Part shown: positions 14,658 through 51,773 of the stretch, one piece after another | Numbering within the stretch: position 1 is the stretch's first letter | Layout of the letters: each line of letters opens with the position of its first letter | DNA from: Hydnum rufescens UP504 | Taxonomy: Eukaryota; Basidiomycota; Agaricomycetes; Cantharellales; Hydnaceae | Reading direction: 5' to 3' | Assembly (NCBI GenBank): GCA_014904985.1 | Contig: MU129115.1 | Location: forward strand, 35,561 to 87,441 | DNA: 51,881 nucleotides | The notes under the pieces: model-generated | Told to the model about the DNA's origin: nothing | Seen by the model: the letters and a program-made list of their open reading frames with translations, nothing else | The model's database searches: none | Translations under genes and position numbers: made by a program

Positions 14658-16930
14658 ATGGATGATGTCGTAGACATGACTGTCCGCGATCCGACCATAG
14701 ATGCAGTTGAACGTCTCTCAACTCCACCGAATCGCACGAGCCAGTTGCCCAGCATATCGCAACGCACACCCGTCAGCAACGGTGTGTCTAGCTATGCATC
14801 CAGCGATCGCAGTCAACTTAAGCTGCAGCCTTTCCTTGATCGCGACATCAAAGACCCGCTCATCATCAGCTTCGAAGCCTTTCTGCAGGACGTCTTTGAA
14901 TTTAACGCCAGCACCGATATCAATCTGGAGGAGATATGCCAAAATGACGAGACTTGTTGCCTTTTACAGGCCTTCGTACTTACTTTGGACCAGTCAGAAT
15001 CCCGGCGATATGAGCCTTTTATCAACTTGGCCAACAACATGTCTTCGTTGATTGCCAACACAAATGGCAGAGAATGCTCCATCTTCGCACGACGCCATGA
15101 CCGACATGCCGCGGAGAACTCATCAAAGGCAACAAGGCTCCCAGACGTCGTTTTTGTCTCAAAATCGGAAGATTTGCAGTGCAATTCATTGCACTGGTCC
15201 GATATCAAATTGGTGTTGGAATTCAAGGTCAAGTCACCGTGAAGTAATGTTCTTTCTTCCGGAATGTCTTTGGCACCATCAAGTGCAAGCACGGGGTCCA
15301 AACGCCGGCCCGGAGTGTCAGCGAGCGACAATGCGCCCAACAAATTTCTGCGGACTACGCCCTTCAAGAACAATCGAGACACACTCCAATTAGCATCGTA
15401 CGCACTCGAATCCTTCTACCACGGACCCTATCGCGGTCACGTTGTCCACGGAATGATCCAGGGGTCTATGCTTGAACTGTGGTATTATGATCGCGTTGGG
15501 GCTGTGAGGTCTGAGGCAGTCGATTTTGCCAAGAATCTGGTATTGCTGGCCCAATTTCTTATGGCTATTGCACACCTCTCCGAAACAGGCTGGGGCATTC
15601 ATCCGAGAATTACTTATCCCCGATTGACGCCCCTTTCGCGATCGCCCAGCCTTCATCCCAAATCACCGACCCCTTATTCCACCGACGACAAGGGCCCGTC
15701 CCTTGACACTGGGTCCCACAGCTCTGTGCACGGTTCCAGCTATGAGTCAACACCAGAATCCCCACTCGATTGTAATGAACCCTTCCACGGGGCTACGATC
15801 ACGATCCAAGGTCGAGAATTTGTTCTCGGTGTTTGCCTTGTGCGCCAATATGCTTTGACTGGCCGGGGTACCTGTGTCATTGACGCTGATGGTGGTCGTA
15901 TGGTCGTCAAACTTAGCTGGCCAGATAAATCCAGGACGCCAGAATACGAATTCCTGGAGCGAGCTTACACGAATGCCAAGGAATACAGCGATGGGAAATA
16001 TGACAATATGAAAAACCATCTACCGGTTCTCGAGGCGAAGGAGGACTTTGGTGAATGGGGTCCGCGGAGCCGTATCTTTGCCCGGAGATCCACATTGGAC
16101 CCTTCAGGAATGGGATCACGTATTCTGAGGGTTACTGTCTACCAGAAGCTGGAACCAATGACCGGGATCCGCACTGCCGATGATCTCGTGAGCGTGATGC
16201 GATATATAGCTCTATGTGGGTATCCCTGTTATACGATGCCTTGTTGGATGATTGCTAAGGGATGATTTCTTTAGGCCATCGCTGGCTCTATCGAGTTATG
16301 GGGATTCTCCATCGCGATATCACCATGGATAACATTATGATTCGCCGCAATGGTGCCAAGGTCGTCGGCGTCCTGATCGACTATGATCTGGCCGTTGATA
16401 TCAACAACCCATCCAGGGCGAGCTTGGAACGAACTGGTGTTCCTCGTTTTATGGCTATTGATCTTATGAAGGGCACAGACATGCATCATCACGCGAGGCA
16501 CGATATGGAAGCGATGCATTGGGTACTAGTGTGGTTTAGCTTCCGGTATGAGGATGGAAGGGAGATACCCGCTGCTCGGAGACCCTTGGAGAAATGGGTT
16601 ACCAGCCTGAACCTTGACGATGTGAAGAATTCATTTTTGCACACCATTGAAGGACACCCAACTCCACCTTTCTCTAGCCTCGATATATCATGGATCATTC
16701 CTTTGAGCGGGCTATTCTCCCAAGCGCATGGGCAGCTGACGTCTTATACTCGACTCGTCGATCTGGGTAAATCCCCTGTCTTCCCCCCTGATGCGGCCTT
16801 CTTTCATGATACCTCTATGTGGACTGCTTTTTGGAAGGTGTTAAACCCCGATGAGCACCTTGACTTTGACGACGTCTGTAACAGCGCACGGTTGGGATTT
16901 TTACCTTGCCCGAGACATAGCAGTTTGTGA
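14658..16930 (+). CDS. FunK1-type fungal protein kinase (722 aa)
   Basis: Three exons, 14658-15238, 15284-16215 and 16275-16930, joined by a 45-nt intron (GTGAAG...AAG) and a 59-nt intron (GTGGGT...TTTAG), give one uninterrupted 722-residue frame. The FunK1 order is clear: a helical N-terminal region, then SYALESFYHGPYRGHVVHG and LELWYYDR in the middle, GREFVLG, QYALTGRGTCV, and the presumed ATP-binding Lys403 in MVVKLSW. Then come GILHRD with catalytic Asp519 and Asn524, and IDYDLAVD (Asp540-Asp542) in the metal-binding position, followed by FMAIDLMKG and HDMEAMHWVLVWFSFRYEDG. FunK1 kinases are fungus-specific eukaryotic-type kinases that are highly expanded in Agaricomycetes; substrates are largely unknown. 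Catalytic residues are intact and no internal stop was found. More 5' exons are possible, but the ATG chosen gives a normal-length product. Confidence 0.87.
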
Positions 16931-22734: not shown

Positions 22735-23890
22735 GACAGGAGAAGATGAGGAACTGTGAGGCCAGAAGTGGTCATAATACACTGGAAAGTGGGTGTGTTG
22801 AAAAGCTGTGATTTGGGTGCACAGAATGCACCCACACACAGCCTGAGCAACAACACCTAGTCCCCAGGGGGGGCACATGAACCCAAAATAGAAGATTGAG
22901 GATAGTGCAGTGGAAAGTAGTCAGTTTGTTGCTTACATATGCTCATGAGATTTGGATGAATGAGACGAATTGATTGACCCCAAGAACCCCAAAATCAGAC
23001 ATGATTTGACCCCCCCAGGTGATGTTGACAGGGAGATGAGGGGAAGATGAGGAACTGTGAGGCCAGAAGTTCTCAGAATACACTGGAAGGAGGTGTATGG
23101 AAAAGCTGTGATCTGGGTGCACAGAATGCACCCACACACAGCCTGAGCAACAACACCTAGCCCCCAGGGGGGGGCACATGAACCCAAAATGGAAGATTGA
23201 GGATAGTGCAGTGGAAAGTGGTTGGTTTGTTGCATAAATATGCTTGACGGATTCCAATGAATGAGATGAATTGAGTGACCACAAGAACTTCAAAATTGGC
23301 CATGATTTGACCCCCCCAGGTGATGTTGAGTGGGAGATGAGGGGAAGATGAGGAACAGTGAGGCCAGATGTCCTCAGAATACACTGGAAGTAGGTGTGTT
23401 GAAAAGCTGTGATTTGGGTGCACAGAATGCACCCACACACAGCCTGAGCAACAACACCTAGCCCCCAGGAGGAGCACATGAACACAAAATGGAAGATTGA
23501 GGATAGTGCAGTGGAAAGTGGTTGGTTCATCACATAAATATTCTCAACAGATTCAGACAAATGAGACAATCAATGGAGCCCAAGAATGCTGAAATTGGCC
23601 ATGATTTGACCCCCCCAGGCAATGTTGAGTGGGAGATGATGGGAAGATGAGGAACTGTGAGGCCAGAAGTTCTCAGAAAACACTGAAAGTAGGTGTGTTG
23701 AAAGGCTGTGATTTGGGCACACAGAATACACCCATGCACAGCCTGAGAAATGACACCTAGCCCCCAGGAGGAGCATATGAACCCAAACAGGAAGATTGAG
23801 CATAGTGATGTGACATGAATCAGGTGGTGTATTCTCTTGAAGTAGGCTTGTTGGAGAGCTGAGATTTGGCACAGATACTGTGCCCACACT
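22735..23890. repeat. ~300-bp tandem satellite, four copies
   Basis: Copies begin near 22740, 23041, 23341 and 23641 at GGAAGATGAGGAACTGTGAG, so the period is about 300 bp. Each contains GGTGCACAGAATGCACCC (itself an inverted repeat), CACACACAGCCTGAG, ACACCTAGCCCCCAGG and a poly-C run after GATTTGA. The last copy is the most diverged. Minus frames read through whole copies (for example 22943-23569), but content is repeat-derived. Confidence 0.88.
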
Positions 23891-24261
23891 CAGCCTATCC
23901 AACAAAGCCAGGGCCCAGTGCCCCAGTGGGACCCAGCAACATCACATTTGATGTCAGCTGTCTGTTGAAAGCTTGACTCAACACCAGCACTTGCTGAAAT
24001 TAACAAAGCACCCATATACACTGTTCCAATATCCCTGGATACCAGCTATTTTTCTGCCACTTATATTGGTAATTCCATTGTTATATTTCTTTGTTTCTCT
24101 TCATGTCCACTTGCCTACTATCTTGATATCGAAAACAACACCGATCATTCTATTATGCCTACTTGAGCCAAACCCGAACCAAGGACCTCAGCTCAGATGG
24201 TCACCTTCTCGTTCGGATCCACCTCATCCTCGTAGTATTTGGTGAAATGGACAATGAGTGC
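23891..24261. other. Fragment with a foldback-element end at 23971
   Basis: TGACTCAACACCAGCACTTG at about 23972 matches the outer ends of the foldback elements at 31440 and 31918. The rest shows no supported gene. Confidence 0.4.
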
Positions 24262-24264
24262 CCA

Positions 24265-25255
24265 TACCATACTTCACCCATGCAACCCCGTCGTCGTTTG
24301 ATCCTTTACGAAATAAAACATCGCCTCTGCCCGCACCCTGATGACATTGATGTATGAGAAGATGACAGCGAAACATGAAGCGACCCTGCCAATCAATGAA
24401 GGAATCCGAATCCATGGAAAGCCTAAGCGAAATTAAAATGGACACATGATCAATTGGTCTACGGATGCAAAAGTGACATAAAAGCAAATTGAACGACTAT
24501 CCTCAAGGCCTGAATCAAAAAAAAAGTGTTCACCATGCCATTGGAACTTCACACGATTATATACCGGCAATTCGATTACCATACCCAAACCATTCACCCA
24601 TCTCAAACCCCACATGATTATCCGCTATTATCCAAATCCCAAGTTGCATATGATGGCGTTATAAAGACAAAAGAGTTGACTGGACAACATATGAGTTTGG
24701 AGAACCGCATAACAATTGACCCACGATACGCCATGATCTCGAAATTGAATTTGTCCTTCTCCTCTGTATTCCAGAAAACACCACTGTACCTCGTCGAACT
24801 TCTCCATGGATGCTCTTGACCTCCACCCTAACGATATCATCCAAAGTGGGTATTCGCTTAAAAATCCTAGGACAATACAAAGGAAAAACTATTAAAAACA
24901 CGGATATTAAAGACCCTTACCCAACAATAAGCGACTTCTATCACCAAATTCGAAGCACAAGCTCGCAGGAAATCTTGCTTTGGTTCGAAGGATGGACATG
25001 GTGGTTCTACATGAGGAGCATGATCAGATTTCAATCGTATAACTGTGAAAAAGGCAAACGACATTGCAAGGGGCTGCAATTAAAGTGTTCACCATCTGTG
25101 GAAGATAAAAACATCCAGTATCAGAAACATGAAATCACACCACTCCCAGCCTTTGGACGATCACATGACCAATTACGAAATTAATTATGGCTACATGCGG
25201 AAATCGAATTCGTTCTATAACTCCGTCAGTTTTGATCGGAGAGGTACACCCATAT
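24265..25255 (+). repeat. Left arm of a ~1-kb inverted repeat
   Basis: Matches 34757-35760 in reverse orientation along its whole length, with indels. Shared landmarks include the end near TTCACCCAT, AATCAATGAAGGAATC, a frame starting MFTMPLELH (24526), GGGTATTCGCTTAAAAATCC, TGTGGAAGATAAAAACATCC and the inner end near TCAGTTTTGATCGGAGAGG. Overlapping plus frames at 24526-24819 and 24810-25184 look coding (FYHQIRSTSSQEILLWFEGW), but the protein is not recognised. Probably two copies of one element in opposite orientation. Confidence 0.8.
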
Positions 25256-25324
25256 AACGCTCCGAAAGCTACGATTCACACCTTTCGAACGGTACAAACA
25301 CAAGTCGAACGGACCAAAACTGCA

Positions 25325-25615
25325 CTCTCCAGGCCATTTTACTACCAAAAATCCGGAATTTCCAGTAAAAATGAATTTCTCCATCAGTTCGCATTCAATC
25401 CTCTCGGAACAACCGTGCCTAGAAAGATATACAAAATCCGCATCTGACGGTACCGAGCACGCAAAGAACAGATCAAAACTGAACTCTACAGAGCGATATT
25501 ACTATCAGAATCAACACCCATCAGTAAAAAACGAATTTCTCTGTCAGTTTACACCGGATCTTCTTGGAACCACCACGCCCAGAAAGCTGTGAAAAATCCG
25601 CATCTAATGATATCA
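25325..25615. repeat. ~165-bp direct duplication
   Basis: ACTACCAAAAATCCGGAATT at 25341 and ACTATCAGAATCAACACCCA at 25499 start two copies sharing AAAAATGAATTTCTCCATCAGTT/AAAACGAATTTCTCTGTCAGTT type blocks, a CCTAGAAAG/CCCAGAAAG block and AAAATCCGCATCT. Confidence 0.65.
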
Positions 25616-25769
25616 AGAACGTCTATTACGGATGCAAACTGCTGTTTCTGCATTGAATCCCATCCCATGCACTTGTCCCCATTATCAACCAACAACAAAA
25701 CACCTTAACCACTGGACTATGCTCAAATTAATCTCCAAAACCCGGAGATATCTTTCATTTCGCCTCCAT

Positions 25770-26225
25770 AATGCTCCACATGGTCAGTGACCACATGTTC
25801 CATAAGCATTCCACATGCTCAGCAAATTGGTGACATCACCCCCCCTCATGATTCCTTTTGTTCTCTTTATGAATGACATCACTATGACATCACTCCTCAT
25901 GATTTCTTTTGTTCTCTTTATGCATGACTCAGCTATGACCGCATTATTACATCATCTTGTTATTTTTCTTTTGTTCTCACCTATGACTCACATATGACTC
26001 ACCCATGGGGGAGTCATATTTCTTAAACACAGCCACCTTCAGAAAGGTATAAAAGCTGGTAGATTTCCTGTACCCACACACAATAATCTCCTCTGGAAAT
26101 CATTACTGTCAACCACTGTCAACTTTTCTGCTTGCCTCTAAAGAACAGTCTATCTATAAGCCATCTGGAGCTAAGTCATCTTCAAGGTTGTTGAGACAAA
26201 GCCACTGGTAGCCCTCTACGCGAAT
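25770..26225 (+). mobile_element. Putative solo LTR
   Basis: The layout resembles Agaricomycete LTR-retrotransposon LTRs: a TATAAAAG box at 26048, downstream CCTCTGGAAATCATTACTGTC and repeated CTGTCAAC, a short tract of TCTAAAGAACAGTC, and an end near GACAAAGCCACTGGTAGCCC. Short TTTTGTTCTC repeats precede it. No internal gag-pol or second LTR was found in the window. Exact ends and a target duplication were not established. Confidence 0.35.
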
Positions 26226-26809
26226 CACTAAAGCCAAGGATAGTTGCAGGACCTAAGGTTAGAGTTGCTGGACATCCAAGGAAAAGTAAGCATAACGAAA
26301 TACATATCAGGTTTTGAAGAAAGAAGAAAGAAACATACTAACAAGACTAACCAAGCACTGACCAGTCTATAACCCACAGATATCCGCATTTTGACCAGGA
26401 GAATGTAAACAAGAATACACAATATCAGTAAACAGACCAACAACACAACACGAACGATGTATAAGCCTTTCCACAAGCATCCCAGACATATAAGCCTTTC
26501 CATAAGCATCCCACATGACGTATAAGCCTTTCTACAAGCATCCCAAACGATATATCATTGACTACAGCTGGTCCATATCCCTTCCTATTCCCCACTGAAC
26601 ACCATACACGTCTTGCAGAGTGTGATCAACCATTGAAGCAAACAGCCCAACGAATAACAACAGAAATACAGTCTCCCATCCACACACTGGCTGAACCAGA
26701 TTTTGATTTGACAGTCATCAGAGCTCCCAACCCTTCTTCTATAACGGCAAATGAAGCCGTGCCCAACAAAACCACATGAAATGAAGGGCGAGAGGTGGCG
26801 ATGATGCGA
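26226..26809. repeat. Spacer with three ~34-bp tandem units at 26455-26560
   Basis: TATAAGCCTTTCCACAAGCATCCCA-type units repeat three times between 26460 and 26545. Downstream, 26558-26779 is open on plus (73 codons) and leads into the first hairpin unit. No family recognised. Confidence 0.5.
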
Positions 26810-28293
26810 ACCACACACCTGCTGTGGTGGGTGTGTGGTTCTATATAAGATAAGTAGACTTATACATCCCCAACAGTGCAAGAAGAGCAGCAAATGCTGC
26901 TCTTCTTGCACTGCTTTTAATTTTTGAACTAATACATCCATTCTAGGTTACCACTGCAGATGAAGAGCCATGAAACAACCCCCCCCCCCAGAAACAATAA
27001 CCCACCAGCAGAACGAAACCTGTGAATGATGCCAAAACCCCCATGAACCACACATCTGCTATGGCAGGTGTGTGGTTCTATAAGATAAGTAATATTGTAT
27101 ACCCACAATGGCACGAAAGAGCAGCATCTGCTGCTCTTTTGTGCTGATTTTACTTTTTAACTAACACATGATTTATTATTTTAGGTTACAGTATCGCCTG
27201 AACCTCAAACAGCAAAACAAAGATCCCTGGACAAACTCCCCCCATGGAAATGACAATGCCCCGCCAAAGGAAAGCCACAAATGCAACCTGCCAAAACAAC
27301 AAGTACCGAATGAAACCCGTGAATGACAACTGGCCAAGGAACACCCACCAGACGAATCCCATGAACAGGAATGCACAATGCAAGACCCAGAAACCCCAGA
27401 CAGAACCACACACCCACCAAAGTGGGTGTGTGGTAATTTTAAGGTAAGTATTCTTGTAACATATAGTGGTGCTGAAGGAGCAGCATATGCTGCTCCTTTG
27501 GCATAGCTTTTTCTTTTTTTCTTTTTTACTAACATATTATTCATGTATTATCTGGTTCCAGGTTCTCATCTAAACCCACGACCCCCCCCCCCCCAAACAC
27601 TCTAATCAAGACCCATGACCCCACCAAAAAATACCTGTGAACCGCAACTGCGACACAACTCGCCACACCCAACCAGCAAACTGAGGGAAAATGGGCCAGA
27701 CCACACACCTGTGGTGGCAGGTGTGTGGTCATCTAAGGTGAGTCCCATTCCCCATAGATACAGTGGCGCAAAAAGAGCAGCAACAGCTGCTCTTTTTGCG
27801 TCACTTTTAACTTCTTACTAATCTAAATTTTTTTATTCTAGATCTTGCTCCCCCTGAACAAGTACATGCCTGAAAACCCCCCAGCCCCCTGAGCCCTGTA
27901 CCAAAAACCGATGGTGGGGGGTGCACGACCATGGGCCAAAATGAGTACCACCACACCACCAAAGTGGGTGTGTGGTACTATAGGTATTTTTTAAAACTTT
28001 CTACACATATGGTGATGTAAAAGGAGCAGCTTGCACTGCTCCTTTTGCTCACTTTGAATTGCTTCTATTATTCTAGGATCTGAACTGACCTGCGAAATGG
28101 AAAACTGAGCCCAAACTATGCAGCAACCACAGTACAAGATGAGTACCACACACCCGCTGAAGCAGGTGCATGGTACTACAAGGTATTTTTTTTTAAAATT
28201 TATATATATACCGTGATGCAAGGGGAGCAGCCCAGGCTGCTCCTTTGCATCACTTTGAATTTTTTTTTTTACTAATGTATGCTATTATTTTAG
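26810..28293 (+). repeat. Hairpin-intron array 1 (six units, plus)
   Basis: Each unit holds hairpin 1 (ACCACACACC arms), a donor-like sequence, hairpin 2 (GAGCAGC/GCTGCTC core), then a CTAAY-like site in most units and a TTTTAG/TTCTAG end. Hairpin 1 lies at 26810, 27047, 27405, 27700, 27950 and 28145. Hairpin 2 lies at 26877, 27111, 27469, 27765, 28018 and 28215. Acceptor-like AG falls at 26946, 27184, 27561, 27841, 28076 and 28293. Donors are GTAAGT (27444), GTGAGT (27738) and GTATTT (27984, 28183); the first two units have ATAAGT instead. Sequence between an acceptor and the next hairpin 1 differs from unit to unit, as exons of a gene would. Reading frames there are only partly open, so a coding role is unproven. 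Confidence 0.85.
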
Positions 28294-28378
28294 GATCCAA
28301 ATTGAAGCCCCTGAAATGACAACCTGCAACTCATCCAAATGACCTGCCCCATGATGAATCATCAAGCCCAGCCCCCTG

Positions 28379-28650
28379 TACCACACCTGCCCAAGTGGGT
28401 GTGGTGCTACTTAGCTTTTTTCTTTTTTAAATTTTGAGGGACAGTACCACACACCTGCCCAAGCAGGTGTGTGGTGCTACTAAGTAGTGCTTTTTTTTCT
28501 TTTGATTTGTATGGACAGTACCACACCTGCTAGGGTGGTGTGGTGCTACTTATTTTATTTTTTTTAATTTTGAGGGATGGTACCATACCCACCCAAGTGG
28601 GTGTGTAGTATATTAATTGAATTTTTTAAATAAATAAATCAATAAATAAA
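28379..28650 (+). repeat. Tail of array 1: four lone hairpin-1 copies and an AATAAATAAA tract
   Basis: Hairpin 1 alone repeats at 28379, 28446, 28520 and 28582, separated by 35-45 nt of T-rich sequence. A TAAATAAATCAATAAATAAAC tract follows, then AGTCAATAACAAGACTGACC. The same order recurs at 34303-34510, marking a shared downstream end. Confidence 0.75.
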
Positions 28651-29559
28651 CAAGTCAATAACAAGACTGACCACTGAAGGAAACACTGAGTGGGGGTATA
28701 TGTATAATATGAATGATTATAAATGGAACTATCCCCAGTATGCCCATATGACCTGCTCCAAGTCTGAGATTCTCTAAGTCCCAGTTTCAGCCAATTTTCA
28801 GCCATTTCAGCCAATTCTGGGCCAGGTGAAATCATAAAAATGGCCATTTTGGCCAAAATAGTGATGGGACCTACTTAGGGACCATTATCTGCCCCAGAAG
28901 TGGTACCTAACTAGGTAGGCTTAGATGACTGACCAAGGTGGGGGTTTTTCTTTTGTGTTGGGAACCACACTTTCACATCATGGCCTTTTGGTACTTTCCA
29001 GATTTGTTCAACACATTTGGGGGTTTGGCTCAAAATCTTGATTTAATCTTGATTTGCTCTGATGACTTGGGGTGACTCATTGGGTGACTCATTTTATATG
29101 GCTTTGGCTTCAGGGATGAGGATCTAGGTTCTTTTTTTTTGATTTTTTAATTTCCCATAACACCTCATGATGTACCCAATGACACATCTGAATCTGAAGA
29201 TGAGATTTCACTGACAATTAACTGGCAATGCCACTCAATAAGTTTGTCACCCCAATACTCCCAACTATTAGTAGCCTGCCAGGTTGGCCACAAATAATTC
29301 CGTAAATGGTTTTCTGGACCAAAGGACACCTGGGGTCATTCCCAGTACTCGAAATCCCGTGATATCCCAGCATTGTTATCAATTAATTCCTGATTGGGAA
29401 CAGTGGCTGTGATTGCATATACATCTGCTGATAGTTCATTTCCCGTTTCATCATGATTTGTAATATCCATTTTTGGTATATGGTCATGTGAATAGTATTT
29501 CCTAATTCAGTTAGCTGCAAATATGGCATTCATAGGAGTACCATCCAATCACCTTGGTC
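28651..29559. other. Spacer sharing its start with 34511 onward; no gene
   Basis: The first ~130 nt resemble 34511-34615 (TATGTATAATAT and TCTCTAAGTCCCAGT are shared). After that nothing recognisable is seen. Confidence 0.4.
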
Positions 29560-29860
29560 AGCCATTTAGAGGGGCCTTAATAGGTATGTCACACTGCATC
29601 AAATCAAAAGCCTAAGAGGCATCAAAATCCTTTGATATCAAATAATTTCAAGAGGGTGACCTTAGGTCAATCCGTAAGTCTGCCCATAGGCATTTTGATA
29701 TCAAACTCATATTTGGCTGGGGGTATCAGGATAGGTCCCAGCAAGCCCGGGAATGCCCCCAAGTGGGTCAACAGGCCATATGGGCTTCTCAGCAGCTACA
29801 ATATTTACTTATTACTGTATTGTTTATTCTCATCAATAATTATTAATATTATATTATATA
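29560..29860. repeat. Dispersed repeat, copy 2 of 3
   Basis: CACCTTGGTCAGCCATTTAG start, GAGGCATCAAAATCCTTTGAT block shared with the 35975 copy, and GGTCAACAGGCCATATGGGCTT block shared with the 22330 copy. Confidence 0.55.
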
Positions 29861-29879
29861 CATATTATCCCCCGCCCAC

Positions 29880-31372
29880 AAGGGGGGGGGGGTTGCACCC
29901 AGCAGGGCCACACCCCACCTGGTGGCCACACTTCATTTTATCCACACATTTCATCTGGGGGCCACACACCCATTCTTGCAGGTATTTGGTCAGCAGGGTC
30001 ACAGGTTGCTTTGTTCGGGGTCATGGGTTGCTTCATTTGGGGTCATGGGTTGCTTTGTTTGGGGTTGCGTGTTTTGGGGATGGCACAGGTAGTGGGCACC
30101 TACATTAAATAAAGTGCTACCTTAGTAAAAATAAAAATAAAAGAAAACCAATGCAAAAGGAGCAGCCTATGCTGCTCCTTTTGCATGGTCGGACATGTAA
30201 ATATATACTTACTTTAAAGATTACCACACCCGCAGTAGTGGGTGTGTGGCTCTTTATTTCCTCTGTGGCTTCGTGTGTGCATCCTCGGTCCTTCACCCAT
30301 TTTCATTCTCATGGTGGTATGTGTTTGTACGCAGGGTTTGGGCTTGCGGTTGCATGGTTCGTGCATTGGGGTGGGGCATCTTGGCCTAAAATAAAAGATA
30401 AGTTAGTTTAAAAAACTTGCACAAAAAGAGCAGTGACTACTGCTCTTTTTGCATGTTTGTAGCTACTGGAAAAATACATACTTTATGTGGCCACACACCT
30501 GCCGCAGCAGGTGTGTGGCTCCCTCATTTCCCCTGTGGCTTCAGGCACGCATTGTCCTTCATTCGTTGCTGCGTTTGTGCATAATGGGGTGCAGGGTTTC
30601 ATGGGATCTTGGCAGGCCCACAGGTTTAGGTTTGTGGCTGCATGATTTCATGCATTGAGGTGGGATACGTTGACCTAGAATAGGATATGTTAGTTGAAAT
30701 CAAAGGTCATGCAAAAAGAGCAGCGGCTGCTGCTCTTTTTGCATGTTTGTAGCTACTGAAAAAATACATACTTTATGTGGCCACACACCTGCTGCAGCAG
30801 GTGTGTGGCTCCCTCATTTCCCCTGTGGCTTCAGGCATGCATTGTCCTTCATTCGTTGCCATGTTCATGTGTAATGGGCATGGGGTTTCATGGGATCTTG
30901 GCAGGCCTGCAGGTTTAGGTTTATGGCTGCATGATTTTGCATGTTGGGGTGGGATATGTTGACCTAGAATAGGATATGTTAGTTGAAATCAAAGGTCATG
31001 CAAAAAGAGCAGCAGCTGCTGCTCTTTTTGTGCATCTGAAACCAGTGAAACATAATACATACCTTATATGGCCACACACCTGCCTCAGCAGGTGTGTGGC
31101 TCTCTGTTTTCATGCTCTTCATCATGGCTTCCTGTGGGTGTTGTTGTTGTTCATTCATTCACTCGTTCGCATGTTTCCATTCATGTGGTCATCATTCATG
31201 GGTGGGACAGCTTGACCTAGAATAGTAAATCAAAGTATTAGTAAAAAATTTAAAACCTGCACAAAAAGAGCAGCTTTCACTGCTCTTTTTGTGCCATTGT
31301 ATCTACGAGCATAAAAATAAAAATAAAACTCACCTTTTGACCACACAACCCACAGTGGCAGGTGTGTGGTCA
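29880..31372 (-). repeat. Hairpin-intron array 2 (five units, minus)
   Basis: Same module as array 1 but inverted. In minus order hairpin 1 lies at 31340-31370, 31072-31101, 30781-30810, 30482-30511 and 30222-30250. The hairpin 2 copies are at 31260, 31000, 30711, 30421 and 30154. Donors on minus read GTGAGT (31333) and GTATGT or GTAAGT for the others. Acceptors read TTCTAG just before GTCAA at 31217, 30964 and 30675. The exon-like stretches of units three and four are near-identical, suggesting a recent unit duplication. Downstream on minus (30070-29990) three copies of GGGTCATGGGTTGCTT (plus sense) occur. Confidence 0.83.
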
Positions 31373-31439
31373 TTGGTGTCTGCCTTTCTAGGCAGTTGCC
31401 TCTTAAGTTCGGTGGGTGTATGTGGTCAAGGGAGAGACC

Positions 31440-31917
31440 AACTCAACACCAGCAATTGCCGGAATTCAAAAGGTGCCCAAGTGCTGGCATGGCAAGCAGG
31501 ATATGGATGAATAATAAGGAGACAAATGAGCGATAGATGTTAGATAATAAATATTCTGTGCCAAAAATGATAGAGAACAATAATAATAAGGCAGACTTCC
31601 ATGAGGCCACTATATGCCCACATTGCAAAGCAGGTTGGATCATTTCTGTGGGCCAGAATTGAGCCAAATTTGAATATGTTGGTCATACATATGCATATAC
31701 TATGGACAATTCATTATTATAGACAATCCGGTCATTTTTCAATTTCTGGCACCTTCAAATTGCCTATTTAGGCAATTGAAGCGTGCCAGAAATTGAAATG
31801 GCCGGATTGTCTATAATAATGAATTGTCCATAGTATATGCATATGTAAATGCCACACATATTCAGAATTTGGTCGCATGTCTTTCAGGCTGGCGCTTGTT
31901 GTGGTTTTGGGAAAGAA
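31440..31917. mobile_element. Foldback element A
   Basis: Outer left end ACTCAACACCAGCAATTGCC. The core is a near-perfect inverted repeat of about 77 nt per arm (31686-31845) centred on CAAATTGCCTATTTAGGCAATTG. Flanking arm sequence (CCAAATTTGAATATGTTGG against CCAACAC...-type complement) continues the pairing with lower identity. The right outer part is truncated where element B starts. No coding capacity. Confidence 0.75.
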
Positions 31918-32582
31918 GATGACTCAATGCCGGCATTGCCAGGTTGTTTAAAAGTGCCCAAGCGTGGTGCTTGCAAGCAGAATACATATTAATAACCAAG
32001 TATAATAGACATGAAATAACACTATATATATATATATTTGTCCAAAAATGTTGAAAAGATGAATGATAATAAGTCAGAGCTCAAATAAGGCATGAAAGGC
32101 TAATTGCAAGAGTGGATGGGGGGCCACTTCTATGAGTCACAATTGGCCCAAATTTAAATATAATGATAGTAAATGCATACCCCTACATGGCGACCAGTTA
32201 TATTAGACGATTCTGGCACTTTTCAATTTTTCATGCCTTCAATTCCCTATTTAGGGAATTGAAGGCGTGAAAAATTGAAAAGTGCCAGAATCGTCTAATA
32301 TAACTGGTCGCCCATGTAGGGCACATATACGCCAGCAATATATTTAAATTTGGGCTGATCCTGAACAGTAGAAATTGCCCAATCCACCTTGCAATGTAGC
32401 ATATCATGCCTTATTGGACTCTGACTGATTGTCTAGGTCTTCTTTATTTTTTTGGGAAGACATTAATCATATATTATTTATTCTACATCTATTTACTTGC
32501 TACCAATTCATATGGCACTTGTGGCACCATGCACTTGGGCGCTTTTTGGGTGCCGGCAATTACTGGCATTGAGTTGCCTTCG
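31918..32582. mobile_element. Foldback element B
   Basis: Left end GACTCAATGCCGGCATTGCC pairs with right end GGCAATTACTGGCATTGAGT. Arms of about 330 nt pair throughout. The inner 65 nt (32190-32332) are almost perfect around CAATTCCCTATTTAGGGAATTG, and the outer parts are diverged but collinear (AAATAAGGCATGA, TTGCAAG and CCCAAATTTAAATAT are present in both). Element A has the same plan with different inner-arm sequence. No coding capacity. Confidence 0.82.
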
Positions 32583-34181
32583 TTCTCGACCACTAAGGCA
32601 ACCACCCAAAAAGGAAATAGACGACCACACACCCACCACTGCGGGTGTGTGGTCACTAGGTGAGTCTCCTTTTATAGTAGTAGCTACAACAGTGCAAAAA
32701 GAGCAGTGAAGGCTGCTCTTTTTGCTCTGCTTTGAATTTCTTTACTAATGTATCTTTATTATTCTAGATGATGGCCTGGGACGCCAGACAAAAAACCCCC
32801 CAGCGACGAGGGCATGACCAACCAGGGCCAAAACAACAACAAGCCAGCTGACAAGAAAATGACGTACGAGAACACCAATGAGACCACGGCAGATGTGCCC
32901 AGTGAACGGCCATAAGAACCACACCTGCTGCAGCGGGTGTGTGATTCTATGTAAGGTAAGTCACTCAGTACACCCAACAGCACAAAAAGAGCAGCATTTG
33001 CTGCTCTTTTTGCGCTGGTTTTAATTTTTAACTAATATATTGTCTATTATTCTAGGTCCATCGCCTGAATCAGAACCACCAAACGAAGACCTGCCAAACG
33101 ACAAGTCGCCAAATGAGCTGCCAAACGAGCACCCACCAAACAAGCACCCACTAAACGAGCACCTGCCAAACAAGCACCCACCAAACGAGCACCCGCCAAA
33201 CAAACACCCACCAAACAAACACCCACCAAACAAACACCCGCCAAACAAACACCCACCAAACAAACACCCGCCAAACAAACACCCGCCAAACAAACACCCA
33301 CCAAACAAACACCTGCCAAACAAACACCCACCAAACAAACACCCGCCAAACAAACACCGCCAAACAAACACCCACCAAACAAACACCCGCCAAACGAGCA
33401 CCCACCAAATGAGCACCCACCAAACGAGCACCCGCCAAACGAGCACCACCAAACGAGCACCACCAAATGAGCACCTGCCAAACCAGTACCCCCAAAATGA
33501 GCACCCGCCAAACAACGACCCGCACGCGTAACTACACAAACCACACACCCGCTTCGGCGGGTGTGTGGTAATATTAGGTACGTCCAATCCCAACAGTGCC
33601 AAAAGAGCAGCAGAAGCTGCTCTTTTGGCACCTCTGTTTTCTTTTTTTTTTACTAATGTATTATTATTTGTTCTTCTAGGTCTCTTCCCTCCGTGAAGAC
33701 CCACCCGACGAGGACACAGACGAGCCCCCAATATGCGCAGCCACCCAAGCCGCCCCCCGAAATGATGATCAACGGAACCGTGTACCACACACCCGCCAAA
33801 GTGGGTGTGTGGTAAATATTAGGTACATCTTAATCCCACCGGTGCCAAAAGAGCAGCAGAAGCTGCTCTTTTGGCACCTTTGTTTTCTTTTTTTTACTAA
33901 TATATTATTATTTGTTGTTCTAGGTCCATTCCCTACGTGAAAACTCACCTGACGAGGACACAGACGAGCCCCCCCAGTATACCATTTAATGTGCAGCCCC
34001 ACATGCCTTGAGTGCCTGCCCCCCAAACACGACAATCGGCGAAATCGCGTACCACACACCCACTGTGGCAGGTGTGTGGTTTTATATAATGTAAGTGCAC
34101 CCCCAACGGCGCAAAAAGAGCAGCACTGCTGCTCTTTTTGCGCCTGTTTTAATTTTTTAAACTAATGATCTATTATTCTAG
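32583..34181 (+). repeat. Hairpin-intron array 3 (five units, plus)
   Basis: Hairpin 1 lies at 32624, 32917, 33540, 33784 and 34051. Hairpin 2 lies at 32693, 32980, 33596, 33841 and 34110. Donor-like sites are GTGAGT (32660), GTAAGT (32956), GTACGT (33578), GTACAT (33823) and GTAAGT (34091). Every unit has CTAAT before a TTCTAG acceptor, at 32767, 33055, 33679, 33923 and 34181. The exon-like stretches 33680-33822 and 33924-34090 are clearly homologous. In one frame they encode related acidic peptides around SLREDPPDEDTDEPP and SLRENSPDEDTDEPP. The stretch 33056-33577 contains the PNKHP minisatellite. Confidence 0.87.
33108..33525. repeat. 15-bp minisatellite (PNKHP codons)
   Basis: About 27 units of CCAAACAAACACCCG and variants. 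On plus they read PNKHP or PNEHP; on minus they give VFVWW or CLFGG-type repeats. A single missing C near 33356 shifts the plus frame. Located inside the third exon-like stretch of array 3. Confidence 0.9.
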
Positions 34182-34302
34182 GCTAGCAACAAATGAAGAC
34201 CCATAGAATGAGCCCCCCCCCTGAACGATAACTCACCCGCAAAGCAGGATCCACGAACGGGACGCCAAACGACGAAATGAAGTGACGCCAAACCATAGGA
34301 AC

Positions 34303-34510
34303 CCCACACCTGTGATAGCGGGTATGGCTCTGTAAAATATAAGTAATGCACGTCCCCGGTACCACACACCCGTCCAAGCAGGTGTGTTAGATAGTGTTTT
34401 TTTTGTTAGTTTTTAATTTTTTTATGGATAGTACCACATGCCTGCCCAAGCGGGTGTGGTATGTTTGTGAATTTTTGAATAAATAAATAAATAAACCAGT
34501 CAATAAAAAC
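34303..34510 (+). repeat. Tail of array 3
   Basis: Degenerate or lone hairpin-1 copies at 34303, 34359 and 34432 are followed by T-rich spacers and an AATAAATAAATAAATAAACC tract, matching the tail of array 1. Confidence 0.7.
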
Positions 34511-34756
34511 ACAACATGACTGCTGAGTGAAACCCTGCTGACCCCAGGGAGCATATGTATAATATCATGCCAGGTGTAGCCCACTGTTGTCTGAGAATCT
34601 CTAAGTCCCAGTCTAAGGTGAGAGGCAGGGGCCCCTGGGGCCCCTGCCTGAATCATGCAAATCATGTTAGCCGGCCCCAGGGGCCCCCGCCTAAAAACAT
34701 CTAGTTAGACTATTTAAATGCAAGGCTCATTGTATCTAACTAGATGTACATTTGTG
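34511..34756. other. Spacer with two strong hairpins
   Basis: GGCAGGGGCCCC pairs with GGGGCCCCTGCC (34624-34648). ACATCTAGTTAGA (34697-34709) pairs with TCTAACTAGATGT (34735-34747). No gene. Confidence 0.6.
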
Positions 34757-35760
34757 GCTGACCGGGTTGACCTCTCCAATCAAAACTGATGGAGTTATAG
34801 AACGAATTCGATTTCTGCGCGTAGCCGTAATTAATTTCGTAATTGGTCATGTGATCCTCCAATGGCTGGGAGTGGTGTGATTTCGCGTTTTCTGATACTG
34901 GATGTTTTTATCTTCCACAGATGGTGAACACTTTTAATTGCAGCCCCTTGCAATGTCATTTGCCTTTTTCCACAGTTATACGATTGAAATCTGATCATGC
35001 CTCCTCATGTAGAACCACCATGTCCATCCTTCGAACCAAAGCAAGATTTCCTGCGAGTTTATGCTTCGAATTTGGTGATAGAACTTGCTTATTGTTGGGT
35101 AGGGGTCTTTAATATCCGCGTTTTTAATAGTTTTTCCTTTGTATTGTCCTAGGATTTTTAAGCGAATACCCACTTTGAATGATATCATTAGGGTGGAGGT
35201 CAAGAGCATCCGTGGAGAAGGTTTGACGAGGTACAGTGGTGTTTTCTGGAACGTGGAGGAGAAGGACAAATTCAATTTCGAGATCATGGTGTATTGAGGG
35301 TTGATTGTTATGCAGTTCTCCAAACTCATACGTTGTCCAGTCAACTCTTTTTGTCTTTATAATGCCATTGAATGCGACTTGGGGATTTGGATAATAGCGG
35401 ATAATTGTGTGGGGTTTGAGATGAGTGAATGGTTCAGGGTATGGGTAATCGAATTGCTGATATACAATCATGTGAAGTTCCAATGGCATGGTGAACACTT
35501 TTTGATTCGTGCCTTGAGGATAGTCGTTCGATTTGCTTTTATGTCACTTTTGCATCCATAGACCAATTGATCATGTGTCCATTTTAATTTCACTTAGGCT
35601 TTCCATGGATTCAGATTCCTTCATTGATTGGCAGGGTCGCTTCATATTTTGCTGTCATCTTCTCATACGTCAATGTCATCAGGGCGCAGGCAGAGGCGAT
35701 GTTTTATTCCAAAAGGATCAAATGATGATGGGGGTTTATTCAGGAGGGTGATGGGTGAAC
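34757..35760 (-). repeat. Right arm of the ~1-kb inverted repeat
   Basis: Reverse-complement counterpart of 24265-25255. The corresponding minus frame starts MFTMPLELH at 35498 and stays open to 35124. A second minus frame runs 35344-34976. Indels place the frames differently in the two arms, so neither copy looks functional. Confidence 0.8.
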
Positions 35761-35974
35761 ATAGGAAGGTAGACCATCCTTCTGTCGACATTCCCATATA
35801 CGAGTGTCTTTATTTCCACCCTCACATGAAAATCAGAGTCATCGGAGTAGTCTCGGATTACGTGATATGATTCGATGCGGGTGATTGTATACGTTTGGAC
35901 TGTGGTTGTCGTGTTGGGGCAAAAGTAACCTCTTCGTCCAATGTGGAGATTTAGAATTGGGTTGTTTGGGTCCC

Positions 35975-36130
35975 TGATGCACCTCAGTCAGCCACTTGGA
36001 CTGATCTCAAAAGACATGTCGAACCGCATCAAATTAATTGCCTATGAGGCATCAAAATCCTTTGATCTCAAATAATTTCAATGCCATGACCTCAGGCGAC
36101 AGACATGGTCTTTTGATCTCAAATAATATC
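35975..36130. repeat. Dispersed repeat, copy 3 of 3
   Basis: CACCTCAGTCAGCCACTTGG start and GAGGCATCAAAATCCTTTGAT block shared with the copy at 29560. Truncated. Confidence 0.5.
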
Positions 36131-38381: not shown

Positions 38382-39168
38382 CACCTAATGCACCCTCAAA
38401 ATAGTACCTCTTAGGTGGTTTGAGTTTGCATCTGCAAACCACCTAAGAGGTGTTCTGAGTATAGGCATGTCTAAGACACACCTGAGGGGTATTTTTGGGG
38501 AATTTTTTTTCTAAGTTCACTATATAGACATGTCTAAAATAGCCTGCTGCAGGCACCACCTGGGAGGGTTTGTTCACTGGCTGGAGAGTGTTACAGGTCT
38601 AATTTAGGCATGTCTAATAAGATATTTTCTGGAGCCTTAGAGGTGTCTATCATCCTTACTGTGTGTGTACTGGTGTCTAAATCAACATTTTGAGCCCAAG
38701 ACCTCTGGTGGCAGTACTAATAGGTGTCTAATGTTGTCTAGATCCAATAATAATCCAATAATAATGGTGCTATTTATGCATGTCTACTAGTGTCTAAATT
38801 AAAACAAAGGCATCTGCTCAGGGGGAGATCATTAGATGGTGTCTAATTCAACACTTGTGGTACTCTTGTGGATGTGTGCACAGTAATGTCTAAATCAAAC
38901 TTTTTGACATAAGGGCCCCTGCTCAGGTGACATCATTAGGTGGTGTCTAATGGTGTCTAAATCAAACATTTTGACATAAAGGCACTTGCTCAGGTTGCAG
39001 TACTAAGAGATGTCTAATGGTGTCTAGATCAATAATTGTGGGACCATTGCAGATGTGTGTCTACTAGTGTCTAGTCATGTCTAGACATGTCTAGACATGT
39101 CTATAGTCATGTCTAGTCATGTCTAGGCATGTCTAGACATGTCTAGTCATGCAAAGGGTGCATTAGGT
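38382..39168 (+). mobile_element. Left outer module with its own terminal repeats
   Basis: Begins CACCTAATGCACCCT and ends AGGGTGCATTAGGT (39155-39168), so it is itself bounded by inverted 14-bp ends. It includes an inverted pair CACCTCTTAGGTGG/CCACCTAAGAGGTG near the outer end, many GTGTCTAA and GTCTAAATCAA repeats, and the AGACATGTCT array near its inner end. Confidence 0.75.
39058..39152. repeat. AGACATGTCT subterminal array, left
   Basis: About eight to ten overlapping copies of the palindromic decamer AGACATGTCT and near variants (GTCATGTCTA). Confidence 0.85.
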
Positions 39169-42100
39169 AATATCCCATAATAACTTTGGATATCCAGTTA
39201 CATAATAAAGTGTTTCTTATTTTAAAAAAAGCCTAAATGCGGAAATTGGATGAAGTACATCCAAATGACATTTAGCCATCCAGCCTAATGGAGGCCCAGG
39301 ACCAGGGGGAGGTGCCTGGGATGGGTGGAGGACCCCTAAGGACCCTGGCTGAGTGAAGAAACCAGGCCCAGAGCAAGTGCCTAGTGCCTGGAGAGATGGG
39401 GCAGTAAAATGAATACCGGAAATTGCGGAACTTGCCGGATCTGAACCGCTGGGTGGTTCGTTCTGAAACTTGGCACATGATTGGGGACTATTAGGGTGAA
39501 GAACATATTAAAATCTCAGCCAATTCTGATCAGTAGGTATTGAGATATGAGGAAAACAAGTTTGGACACTGAAAATTAATTTCCTCCCCTTACAGAATAC
39601 CTGGAAACTTGAAAATTTTCACAGAGTATGATAATATAATGTACTAATTATGTGCCAAAAATTATCCCAATCCACCCACTTTAAGGTAGGGAACTGGACA
39701 ATGGATACAGAGACAGTGAAAATGCCAAAAAATACCCAATGAGCAGACATTCTGGAAATTGGCATGTGGATTAGACACTGCTCAGGTGAAGAAACATATT
39801 AACTTTCAGCCAAATCCATGCAGTAGGTACAGAGATTATTGAGCCACATAGGTTCAACCTTGAAAATTGATTTACTCCCCTACAGACAAGTTTATGGACT
39901 TGGAAATTTTACATGGAAGTTATGACCATGTAATAAAATAAATATGTGCCCAAGAATCCAGCTTATTTTCGTTTAACTTCAGCATTGAACTCCCTTTTCA
40001 AGGCAAAAAGGGAAACAAAAGCCTTAACCATAAATGTAGAACACTCCACATTAGGACCTAAACTAAGGTGGAATAGGCCCTTAGAATAGTTATTATAAAC
40101 TGACTATATCCAAAAAATGAAATACAATTGGATGTGGTGAAAGTGGTGAAATTCAGGGGGAGGGGAGAGAAGAGTCAATAAGTTCAATTATATATAGGAT
40201 GTAGAGCAGAGGTGCTCTAATATAATTGCCAATAAGTTTTAATACATATATGGGGGTATACATACCAATATCAGCCTGATTTGGACTCCATCTAGGCACC
40301 TATTCACACAGCACTCCCTCCTAATAAATAATTTTCCACCCCAAGAAGCCTTCCATCCATGCAATGGCCCTGAAAATTCACCTTAGGTCGTCATCCAAAA
40401 CATTATCGAATTCATAACATTCCCCAAAATTTCAGATTCATGACCCAGTGTGAGAGTTTCCATAATATTTTCAAGTTTCACTGAATACCCCTTCACCAAT
40501 TGGGGGCACTTCCAGAGTCACAATCTCCCTTTTTGGTAGCGCACACCCGGCACCATTTGGCCACCCAAAATTTCAGGGCCCATTCTAAGCACTTTTGACA
40601 TCTGTCACCATGATCATGATCTCCCCCTGCTTCACTAGGTATCCAATCTGTATGACAGCTGTTGCCATCATGAGTATAGTATTGTAACAGTGTATGATTC
40701 AAATTTCAGAACATTCCATGCAATCTGATTGAGGTTATTCAAAGAAATATTCTAGATCTTATTCAATTTGGGGGGTTAGGGTTATGGTATGTAGTGAATT
40801 TCGACTAACCATACCCCTAACCCCAAATTGAATAGATCTAGAATTATTTCTTGAATAACCAATCATATTGCATGAATGTTCTGAAATTTGAATCATACAC
40901 TGTTACTATACTAACTTACAGAATGGCAACAGCTTTCATACAGATTGGATCATGAGTGAAGCAGGGGGGGGATCATGATCATGTGACCAAATGTCAAAAG
41001 TGCTTAGAATGGCTGACAATTTTGGCCTGAGCCTCAAATGGGTGGCCGGGTGTGGCCTACCAAAAATGGAGTTTGATTGGAGCTCTGGAAGTGCCCAATT
41101 GGAGGGGGTATGTCAGTGGAAACTTGAAAATATTATGGAACTCTCACACTGGATGTCATGAATCTGAAATTTTGGGAATGTTCATGAAAGTATTTGGATG
41201 ACCTAAGGGGTGAATTTTCAGGGCCATTGCATGGATGGAAGGCTCTGGGGTGGAATTGATTATTTAGGGGGGAGTGCTGTGGAATATGCCGTAGATGGAG
41301 TCCAATCAGGCTGATATTTGGTATGTATACTCCCCATATATGTATTAAACTATTGGCATTATATTAGAGCAACCTCTGCTCTACATCTTATATAATTGAC
41401 TTTTGATCTTCCTCCCCCTCCCCCTGAATTTCAACCACTTCCACACATCCAATGTATTTCATTTTTGGATATAGTCAGTGTTATTAATATTCTAAGCCTA
41501 TTCCACTTAGTTTGGTCCTAATGTGGAGTGTTCTACATTTATGGTAGGCTTTTGTTCCCTTTTTGCCTGAAAAGGGAGTTCAATGCCTAGAAGTAAACAA
41601 AATAAGCTGATTCTTGGCACATATTTATTTTATTACATGGTCATACTCCATGTAAAATTTCAAGTCCATAACTTGTCTGTAGGGGGAGTAAATCAATTTT
41701 CAAGGTTGAAACCTATGTGGCTCATATCTCTGTACTACTGCATGGATTTGGCTGAAAGTTGAATATGTTCTTCACCTGAGCAGTGTCTAATCACATGCCA
41801 ATTTCCAGAATTGTCTGCTCATTGGGTATTTTTTGGCAATTTTCACTGCCTCTGGTATCCATTGTCCAGTTCCCTACCTTAAAGTGGGTGGATTGGGATA
41901 ATTTTTTGGCACATAATTAGTACATTATATTATCATACTCTGTGAAAATTTTCAAGTTTCCAGTATTCTGTAAGGGGAGAAATTAATTTTCAGTGTCCAA
42001 ACTTGTTTTCCTCATATCTCAATACCTACTGATCAGAATTGGCTGAGATTTTAATATGTTCTTCACCCTAATAGTCCCCCAATCATGTGCCAAATTTCAG

Positions 42101-42394
42101 AACGAACCACCCGCGTTTCAGATCCGGCAAGTTCCGCAATTTCCGGTATTCATTTTACTGCCCCCATCTCTCCAGGCACTAGGCACTTGCTCTGGGCCTG
42201 GTTTCTTCACTCAGCCAGGGTCCTTAGGGGTCCCTCCACCCATCCCAGGCACCTCCCCTGGTCCTGGGCCTCCATTAGGCTGGATGGCTAAATGTCATTT
42301 GGATGTACTTCATCCAATTTCCGCATTTAGGCTTTTTTTTAAATAAGAAACACTTTATTATGTAACTGGATATCCAAAGTTATTATGGGATATT

Positions 42395-43365
42395 ACCTAA
42401 TGCACCCTTTGCATGACTAGACATGACTAGACATGACTATAGACATGTCTAGACATGTCTATAGACATGACTATAGACATGTCTAGACATGTCTAGACAT
42501 GCCTAGACATGACTATAGACATGTCTAGACATGCCTAGACATGACTAGACATGACTATAGACATGTCTAGACATGACTATAGACATGTCTATAGACATGA
42601 CTAGACATGTCTAGACATGACTAGACATGACTAGACATGACTATAGACATGTCTAGACATGTCTAGACATGACTAGACACTAGTAGACACACATCTGCAA
42701 TGGTCCCACAATTATTGATCTAGACACCATTAGACATCTCTTAGTACTGCAACCTGAGCAAGTGCCTTTATGTCAAAATGTTTGATTTAGACACCATTAG
42801 ACACCACCTAATGATGTCACCTGAGCAGGGGCCCTTATGTCAAAAAGTTTGATTTAGACATTACTGTGCACACATCCACAAGAGTACCACAAGTGTTGAA
42901 TTAGACACCATCTAATGATCTCCCCCTGAGCAGATGCCTTTGTTTTAATTTAGACACTAGTAGACATGCATAAATAGCACCATTATTATTGGATTATTAT
43001 TGGATCTAGACAACATTAGACACCTATTAGTACTGCCACCAGAGGTCTTGGGCTCAAAATGTTGATTTAGACACCAGTACACACACAGTAAGGATGATAG
43101 ACACCTCTAAGGCTCCAGAAAATATCTTATTAGACATGCCTAAATTAGACCTGTAACACTCTCCAGCCAGTGAACAAACCCTCCCAGGTGGTGCCTGCAG
43201 CAGGCTATTTTAGACATGTCTATATAGTGAACTTAGAAAAAAAATTCCCCAAAAATACCCCTCAGGTGTGTCTTAGACATGCCTATACTCAGAACACCTC
43301 TTAGGTGGTTTGCAGATGCAAACTCAAACCACCTAAGAGGTACTATTTTGAGGGTGCATTAGGTG
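42395..43365 (-). mobile_element. Right outer module with its own terminal repeats
   Basis: Inner end ACCTAATGCACCC at 42395-42407, outer end at 43365. Inverted copy of the left module, 971 bp because of the longer decamer array. Confidence 0.75.
42413..42682. repeat. AGACATGTCT subterminal array, right (expanded)
   Basis: Counterpart of 39058-39152 but nearly three times as long, with alternating GACATGTCTAG and GACATGACTATA blocks. Confidence 0.88.
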
Positions 43366-51690: not shown

Positions 51691-51773
51691 TACAGACATG
51701 ATATTTGCTTTGTAATCATTCCTAATATGGCACACAATTACATAATATACTTCATTATATAAGCATTAGCTAA

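What the first reader, a model, noticed from the sequence alone, without database searches (positions are those of the whole stretch)
26810..34460. Modular hairpin-intron arrays (three arrays, sixteen units)
Sixteen units repeat the same plan: a 30-nt hairpin, a donor-like GTRNGT within about 5-15 nt, a second hairpin, a CTAAY branch-like site and a TTCTAG acceptor-like end. The intron-like part is similar in all units while the part between acceptor and next hairpin differs. That is the opposite of a normal satellite and resembles introner-like elements, which spread near-identical structured introns, but here packed in tandem. Alternatively each unit could be a non-coding structured RNA module. 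I know of no described family with this pairing of an exon-end hairpin and an intron hairpin.
Basis: partly seen in the sequence, partly recalled or inferred. Interest (0 to 1): 0.87.

Follow-up and report, generated by a model that had tools for sequence, protein, structure and literature searches.

The report
Jumping DNA built from intron arrays
A fungal genome holds thousands of hairpin-bearing, intron-like modules, and those examined lie packed back to back inside a 4-5 kb mobile DNA element that leaves 8-base target duplications; the modules are predicted to be transcribed and spliced into RNA that likely codes for no protein, a transposon design for which our searches found no description.

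Summary
In detail: all 16 units carry both hairpins and a YAG end, 14 have CTAAY, 11 GTRNGT, 11 TTCTAG. Free-standing introners are not supported. The arrays are the body of a dispersed DNA transposon family ("Y") in a 63-Mb fungal genome: 4.2-5.3 kb, inverted termini (CARCYYRGTCAGCC), exact 8-bp target duplications in 4 of 6 simple copies examined, and a central palindrome between two outward-pointing arrays. The hairpin core occurs 5318 times genome-wide (control 3). Oriented by hairpins alone, 131 of 190 units have a donor (shuffles 6.7) and 147 of 190 branch plus acceptor (14.7). Between subfamilies donor, branch and hairpins stay 81-93% identical (acceptor 60-86%) while "exons" fall to 57-60%. 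Exons show no coding signal (27 of 69 open; shuffles 22.4). Whole units, exon included, also duplicate in tandem. Against RNA-level hairpin selection, G-U and A-C mismatches are equal (124 vs 130); one junction query found no spliced retrocopy. Transcription and splicing are inferred. Best reading: non-autonomous DNA transposons carrying two divergent, likely spliced, non-coding hairpin-intron arrays.

The parts
26807..28293 (+). Array 1: six hairpin-intron units (IH at 26885, 27119, 27478, 27775, 28024, 28225)
30117..31376 (-). Array 2: five units (IH at 31285, 31024, 30735, 30445, 30177)
32623..34181 (+). Array 3: five units (IH at 32701, 32989, 33605, 33851, 34118); GTRNGT donors 32660, 32956, 33578, 34091; acceptors end 32767, 33055, 33679, 33923, 34181
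31374..31872 (.). Centre of the element that carries array 2, with a short palindrome near 31737-31798
31875..32620 (.). Centre of the element that carries array 3, with a 61-nt-arm palindrome at 32189-32312; presumed divergent promoter region (inferred)
33105..33530 (+). 15-bp tandem repeat (CCAAACAAACACCCA) inside one exon of array 3; much shorter in copies C200, C163 and C71
28382..28660 (+). Tail of array 1: lone first-type hairpins without intron hairpin, then an AATAAA-rich stretch
34302..34769 (+). Tail of array 3: lone hairpins, AATAAA-rich stretch (about 34476-34510) and the A-end of the transposon
34740..34769 (+). A-end terminus (...TACATTTGTGGCTGACCGGGTTG)
34770..34777 (.). ACCTCTCC: expected target duplication in repeat X (5 of 6 uninterrupted X copies found keep the octamer); its partner copy is not in the window
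28927..28940 (+). Degenerate end-like motif, probable terminus of the array 1 element
29550..29563 (+). End-like motif CACCTTGGTCAGCC, possible left terminus of the array 2 element; it may instead belong to another small element, since 29550-29666 resembles 35980-36096

Best explanation
The arrays are the body of a dispersed DNA transposon with inverted termini and 8-bp target duplications, which is likely moved in trans by another element's transposase and is predicted to be transcribed outward from its central palindrome into two spliced, non-coding RNAs. Shown: the element ends, the target duplications, near-identical copies of the end, the divergent arrays, the conserved donor, branch and acceptor signals, the hairpins, the drifting exons and whole-unit tandem duplication. 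Inferred: transcription from the centre, removal of each ~100-nt intron with its hairpin, and polyadenylation in the AATAAA-rich tail. Also inferred: the product is the spliced RNA itself, whose exons each end in a hairpin just before the junction, rather than a protein. What the element gains is a guess: a transcript that looks properly spliced, with hairpins covering the zone before each junction, may escape RNA surveillance or splicing-triggered silencing.
For: Ends and duplications: 4 of 6 simple copies with both ends have exact 8-bp repeats. Near-identity: 13 other places match the last 266-270 bp at 97-99%. Divergent pairs: 15 divergent vs 4 convergent opposite-strand neighbours within 3 kb in the 100 listed places. 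Splice signals: 131 and 147 of 190 units against shuffles of 6.7 and 14.7; 3 of 190 on the other strand. Constraint on introns, not exons, between subfamilies (seven annotated units). No coding signal.
Against: No RNA data. G-U and A-C mismatches are equal in the stems (49:52 and 75:78), so present copies show no RNA-strand selection on the hairpins; in 8 group majorities G-U is 2 and A-C is 6. One junction query gave 50 matches and none spans the junction. No transposase was found with the element; the KDZ link failed at the one locus examined. Two of 6 simple copies and 3 of 3 A-end/A-end pairs lack the duplication. Acceptor identity falls to 60% in one of the three subfamily comparisons. 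No promoter was demonstrated.
Confidence: 0.6

Rival explanations
1. The hairpins act as DNA. The transposon carries perfect inverted repeats (cruciforms, protein-binding sites, or palindromes kept perfect by template switching or gene conversion), and the splice-like signals are relics of an ancestral gene that were copied with each repeat.
For: Stem mismatches are symmetric between G-U and A-C; group majorities are almost purely Watson-Crick; the element centre and ends are also palindromic.
Against: Donor, branch and acceptor stay conserved while the linkers beside them drift to 66-69%; donors sit only on the outward strand (131 vs 3 of 190).
Confidence: 0.2
2. Decayed multi-exon protein gene: each array was a gene for a Pro/Asn-rich repetitive protein inside the transposon, now broken by CpG decay.
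For: One exon holds a 15-bp repeat that reads PPNKH-like in one frame; many differences between copies are at CpG sites; a cellular gene can be carried by a transposon.
Against: 69 exons: lengths mod 3 are 17/26/26, 27 open against 22.4 in shuffles (range 13-32); 24 of 24 pairwise exon indels outside the repeat are off-frame, some counted in several pairs; exons at 57-60% between subfamilies while introns are kept.
Confidence: 0.08
3. Introner-like elements that inserted one after another into a transposon transcript.
For: The introns share structure and often have AG|GT-like borders; many introner families have target duplications or inverted repeats (PMC9860276, passages).
Against: Spacing is regular (145 spacings, median 274, quartiles 250-329); whole units with exon are tandem duplicates; 96 of 100 listed places are clustered; no gene-interrupting copy was noticed in the loci read, which were not searched systematically for genes.
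Confidence: 0.06

Closest known systems
Non-autonomous TIR DNA transposons with 8-bp target duplications (Zisupton of the KDZ group, hAT, P types)
   Same: Inverted termini, 8-bp duplications (Zisupton 8 bp: PMC12730594, passages), many dispersed copies, no transposase found. KDZ transposases are abundant in this genome.
   Different: Body made of two divergent hairpin-intron arrays; not shown to share termini with any transposase-bearing element here.
Introners / introner-like elements
   Same: Many related structured introns; link to DNA transposons (PMC9860276, passages).
   Different: Here the introns are internal parts of a larger transposon, arranged in arrays and duplicated with their exons; no solitary gene intron was found in the sample.
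Sister stwintrons of Hypoxylaceae
   Same: Multiplying fungal introns with internal symmetry (PMC8469720 and PMC9024468: search listing and start of abstract only).
   Different: Those are described as introns at gene positions, nested in a second intron; here there are arrays in a transposon and no nesting was seen.
Foldback-type elements (recalled)
   Same: Inverted arms with internal short repeats and palindromes.
   Different: No splice-signal modules are known to me in them.

Membership tests
Non-autonomous TIR DNA transposon | Terminal inverted repeats | tested here: met
   A-end CAACYCRGTCAGCC (also CAGCACAGTCAGCC) and B-end CAGCCTGGTCAGCC, inverted; B border shared by ten fetched pieces
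Non-autonomous TIR DNA transposon | Target site duplication of constant length | tested here: met
   Exact 8 bp in 4 of 6 simple A-B copies; none in 3 A-A pairs
Non-autonomous TIR DNA transposon | No transposase of its own | tested here: inconclusive
   No transposase domain among the frames scanned; frames inside complete copies were listed but not scanned against Pfam, and an autonomous relative may exist
KDZ / Zisupton transposons | 8-bp duplications | tested here: met
   Zisupton 8 bp in PMC12730594 (passages)
KDZ / Zisupton transposons | KDZ transposase inside elements with the same termini | tested here: inconclusive
   KDZ 8-24 kb inward of A-ends 16 times vs 3 outward (102 of 159 ends known, 150 KDZ places used), but at C137 two other repeats lie between the B-end and KDZ
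Introner-like elements | Solitary copies interrupt genes as introns | tested here: inconclusive
   96 of 100 listed places clustered; 2 isolated ones read are array remnants; no genome-wide gene annotation
Introner-like elements | Insertion of the intron alone, without flanking exon | tested here: not met
   Units duplicate with their exon at 30422-31050; regular spacing. This was tested in the window and fetched loci only
Spliceosomal (U2-type) introns | Donor, branch and acceptor signals in order and at intron-like spacing | tested here: met
   131 and 147 of 190 units vs shuffles 6.7 and 14.7; intron length 91-121 in 57 signal-filtered units
Spliceosomal (U2-type) introns | Removal from RNA | not testable with these tools
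   No RNA data; one genomic junction query found no spliced copy
Satellite DNA | Tandem repetition of the whole unit | tested here: inconclusive
   Some neighbouring units are whole-unit duplicates and spacing is regular, but between-unit exons mostly differ and the arrays are short parts of a transposon

The most novel reading that the evidence does not exclude
A transposon family whose product is a pair of divergently transcribed, multiply spliced non-coding RNAs. The selected parts are the introns and the hairpins at exon ends, and the exons are free spacers: mobile DNA that uses splicing itself, for example to pass as a legitimate transcript and avoid RNA-based silencing.
Probability: 0.4. 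Interest if true: 0.82.

Novelty: new variant of a known kind. Interest (0 to 1): 0.62.

Why it matters
Selection usually keeps exons and lets introns drift. Here, within one mobile element, the intron signals and hairpins are kept and the exons drift. If the RNAs are made and spliced, a DNA transposon depends on splicing without coding for a protein. That would make the link between splicing and transposon silencing directly testable and give a natural stock of thousands of variant introns. If they are not, it is still a large dispersed transposon family with near-identical copies and an unusual palindromic body.

Tried and rejected
Rfam: no family reached its gathering score in the window. 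Protein coding: not the best reading. Pfam on 20 window and flank frames: fungal kinase, a lysine/ornithine monooxygenase on another contig, and low-complexity or weak hits. Large inverted repeat 24312-25251 / 34764-35708: first taken as the ends of the array element, then seen to be a separate repeat X into which the array 3 element is inserted. C56 10.3-kb palindrome: first read as one element with 4.5-kb arms, then as two copies facing each other, because the B-end is a constant border. KDZ as the element's own transposase: suggested by positions, not confirmed. Spliced retrocopies: none for the one junction tried. RNA-strand selection on hairpins: not found. Literature: searches in an open-licence library listed no paper whose title or shown abstract describes such an element; subscription papers were not searched.
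Full report
SETTING. The window is G000:C207:35561-87441 of a 63.2-Mb genome in 539 contigs. It is fungal: window frames 15264-16930 match Pkinase_fungal, and a monooxygenase frame on contig C20 is closest to Cantharellus anzutake (60% identity). The host is therefore probably a Cantharellales fungus; this rests on one protein.

OBSERVATION. Sixteen units are present in three arrays: + (26807-28293), - (31376-30117) and + (32623-34181). Of 16, both hairpins occur in 16, strict GTRNGT in 11, CTAAY in 14, TTCTAG in 11 and YAG in 16. The hairpin core has 5318 places genome-wide against 3 for the reversed control. Three stretches folded as RNA give z of -10.0, -4.9 and -6.0.

SPLICE SIGNALS. I oriented 190 distinct units by the order of the two hairpins alone. 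GTRWGT lies within 22 nt after the first hairpin in 131 (shuffles: mean 6.7, max 12). CTAAY followed by YAG lies within 80 nt after the second in 147 (mean 14.7, max 23). A window of like length on the other side of the first hairpin, read on the other strand, gives 3 of 190. Genome-wide, GTRAGT 22-52 nt before the hairpin core has 2532 places against 171 for the scrambled GARTGT. The donor distance from the first hairpin clusters at 7, 9 and 11 nt. The tables filtered units on the signals themselves, so I do not use them as proof of the signals.

WHAT THE ARRAYS BELONG TO. Array tails end at a constant border, in the window at 34769 (...GTGGCTGACCGGGTTG). Thirteen other places match 266-270 of the last 270 bp at 97-99%, and the exact 27-nt end pattern has 157 places with 0 in the control. 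The sequence after the border differs between loci. A second border, the B-end (...GATAATTGGCTGACCAGGCTG), is shared by ten fetched pieces. The two ends are inverted repeats of each other (CARCYYRGTCAGCC). Of six simple copies with both ends, four have exact 8-bp duplications (C1 TGGTAACC, C137 ACATAGTC, C163 CAATGTGC, C56 right copy ATGCATGC); two (C56 left copy, C3) do not. Three pairs of two A-ends (C49, C31, C3) have none. In the window the A-end of array 3 sits in repeat X exactly before ACCTCTCC; of six X copies found that run on without interruption, five keep that octamer. The four aligned complete copies are 4.2-5.3 kb. The arrays point outward from a self-inverted centre. In the 100 listed GTRAGT+hairpin places, opposite-strand neighbours within 3 kb are divergent 15 times and convergent 4 times. 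The centre in the window is composite: 31374-31872 and 31875-32620 match largely different sets of loci, so arrays 2 and 3 are most simply parts of two elements joined there.

EXONS ARE SPACERS. Of 69 exons, 27 have an open frame, against 22.4 in shuffles (range 13-32), and lengths mod 3 are 17/26/26. Among four related copies all 24 pairwise exon indels outside the 15-bp repeat are off-frame, some counted in several pairs; within the repeat 5 of 19 are multiples of three. Comparing complete elements of different subfamilies over seven annotated units (C137-C163, C137-C56b, C163-C56b): exon 57-60%, intron linker 66-69%, donor 83-92%, branch 86-93%, second hairpin 86-91%, first hairpin 81-83%, acceptor 60-86%, centre 70-77%. 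Leaving out CpG sites gives a similar picture. So the "similar intron, different exon" pattern is real, but it is explained by constraint on the introns and drift of the exons rather than by separate insertion of introns. Whole units including the exon are tandem duplicates at 30422-31050, and spacing is regular (145 spacings, median 274, quartiles 250-329, with a tail to 1397).

AGAINST AN RNA READING. If the stems were kept for RNA pairing on the transcribed strand, G-U mismatches should outnumber A-C. They do not: 49 vs 52 in the first hairpin (104 units) and 75 vs 78 in the second (108 units). In majorities of 8 groups of units, G-U number 2 and A-C 6. Many mismatches may be decay after insertion, but the result leaves open that the palindromes matter as DNA. 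One spliced-junction query gave 50 matches, none spanning the junction.

INTRONERS. Of 100 listed places (contigs C1-C5), 96 have a neighbour within 5 kb. Two isolated hairpins were read, C1:444897 (L010) and C2:7611 (L013); both match array units and neighbouring repeats of this family. Of the four isolated places, one (C1:444861) is the L010 place, one (C5:224402) lies about 0.8 kb from an element end, and two were not inspected. Genes were not annotated genome-wide.

WHAT MOVES IT. No transposase was found with the element. KDZ transposases are very common (154 matches, 584 candidates of which 150 scored), Plavaka less so (57). Zisupton makes 8-bp duplications (PMC12730594, passages). KDZ domains lie 8-24 kb inward of A-ends 16 times and outward 3 times; within 40 kb it is 19 and 8. 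At C137, however, two other repeats lie between the B-end and the KDZ domain, so the link is not established.

MECHANISM. My reading is a non-autonomous DNA transposon, predicted to be transcribed outward from its centre and spliced into two non-coding RNAs. Recalled knowledge suggests two uses: a hairpin ending 7-11 nt before each junction would cover the zone where exon-junction complexes are placed (about 20-24 nt upstream), and efficient splicing may avoid the siRNA response to stalled spliceosomes known from Cryptococcus (recalled; related papers seen as a listing only). Both are guesses.

NOVELTY. The mobile-element class is known. A body made of two divergent hairpin-intron arrays was not found in the searches listed under Tried and rejected (open-licence library only).

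Noticed in passing
38747-43000: A second element with long inverted arms: 38747-39151 and 42596-43000 are 100% complementary, with ~10-bp TGTCTAGACATG-like repeats near the arms.
   Followed up: no
24118-26743 and 34770-35977: Repeat X, present many times in the genome (799 first-look candidates, 40 scored and matched); array 3's element is inserted in one copy. A TATA-like GGTATAAAAG stands at about 26046-26055.
   Followed up: partly
L011 6746-7186; L043 716-1526: In two loci the B-terminal piece lies inverted, and the same 8-mer then stands next to the A-end and the inverted B-end (GTTTTCAT; CCAAAGAC). Unexplained; it may reflect recombination or an aberrant transposition product.
   Followed up: no
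22331, 29550, 35980: Further CACCTYRGTCAGCC-like ends: other small elements may share the same terminus type.
   Followed up: no
G000 genome: KDZ transposase domain is strongly expanded: 154 matches from 584 first-look candidates, many with TGA stops.
   Followed up: partly
22738-23807; 50687-51692: A 301-bp tandem repeat (3.6 copies) and a 21-bp tandem repeat (48 copies); the latter's minus frame hits a beta-roll family, probably through low complexity.
   Followed up: no
33536-33680 (+) and 30960-31103 (-): In two of three RNA folds the donor region pairs with the branch region around the intron hairpin, which would bring the two splice signals together.
   Followed up: no
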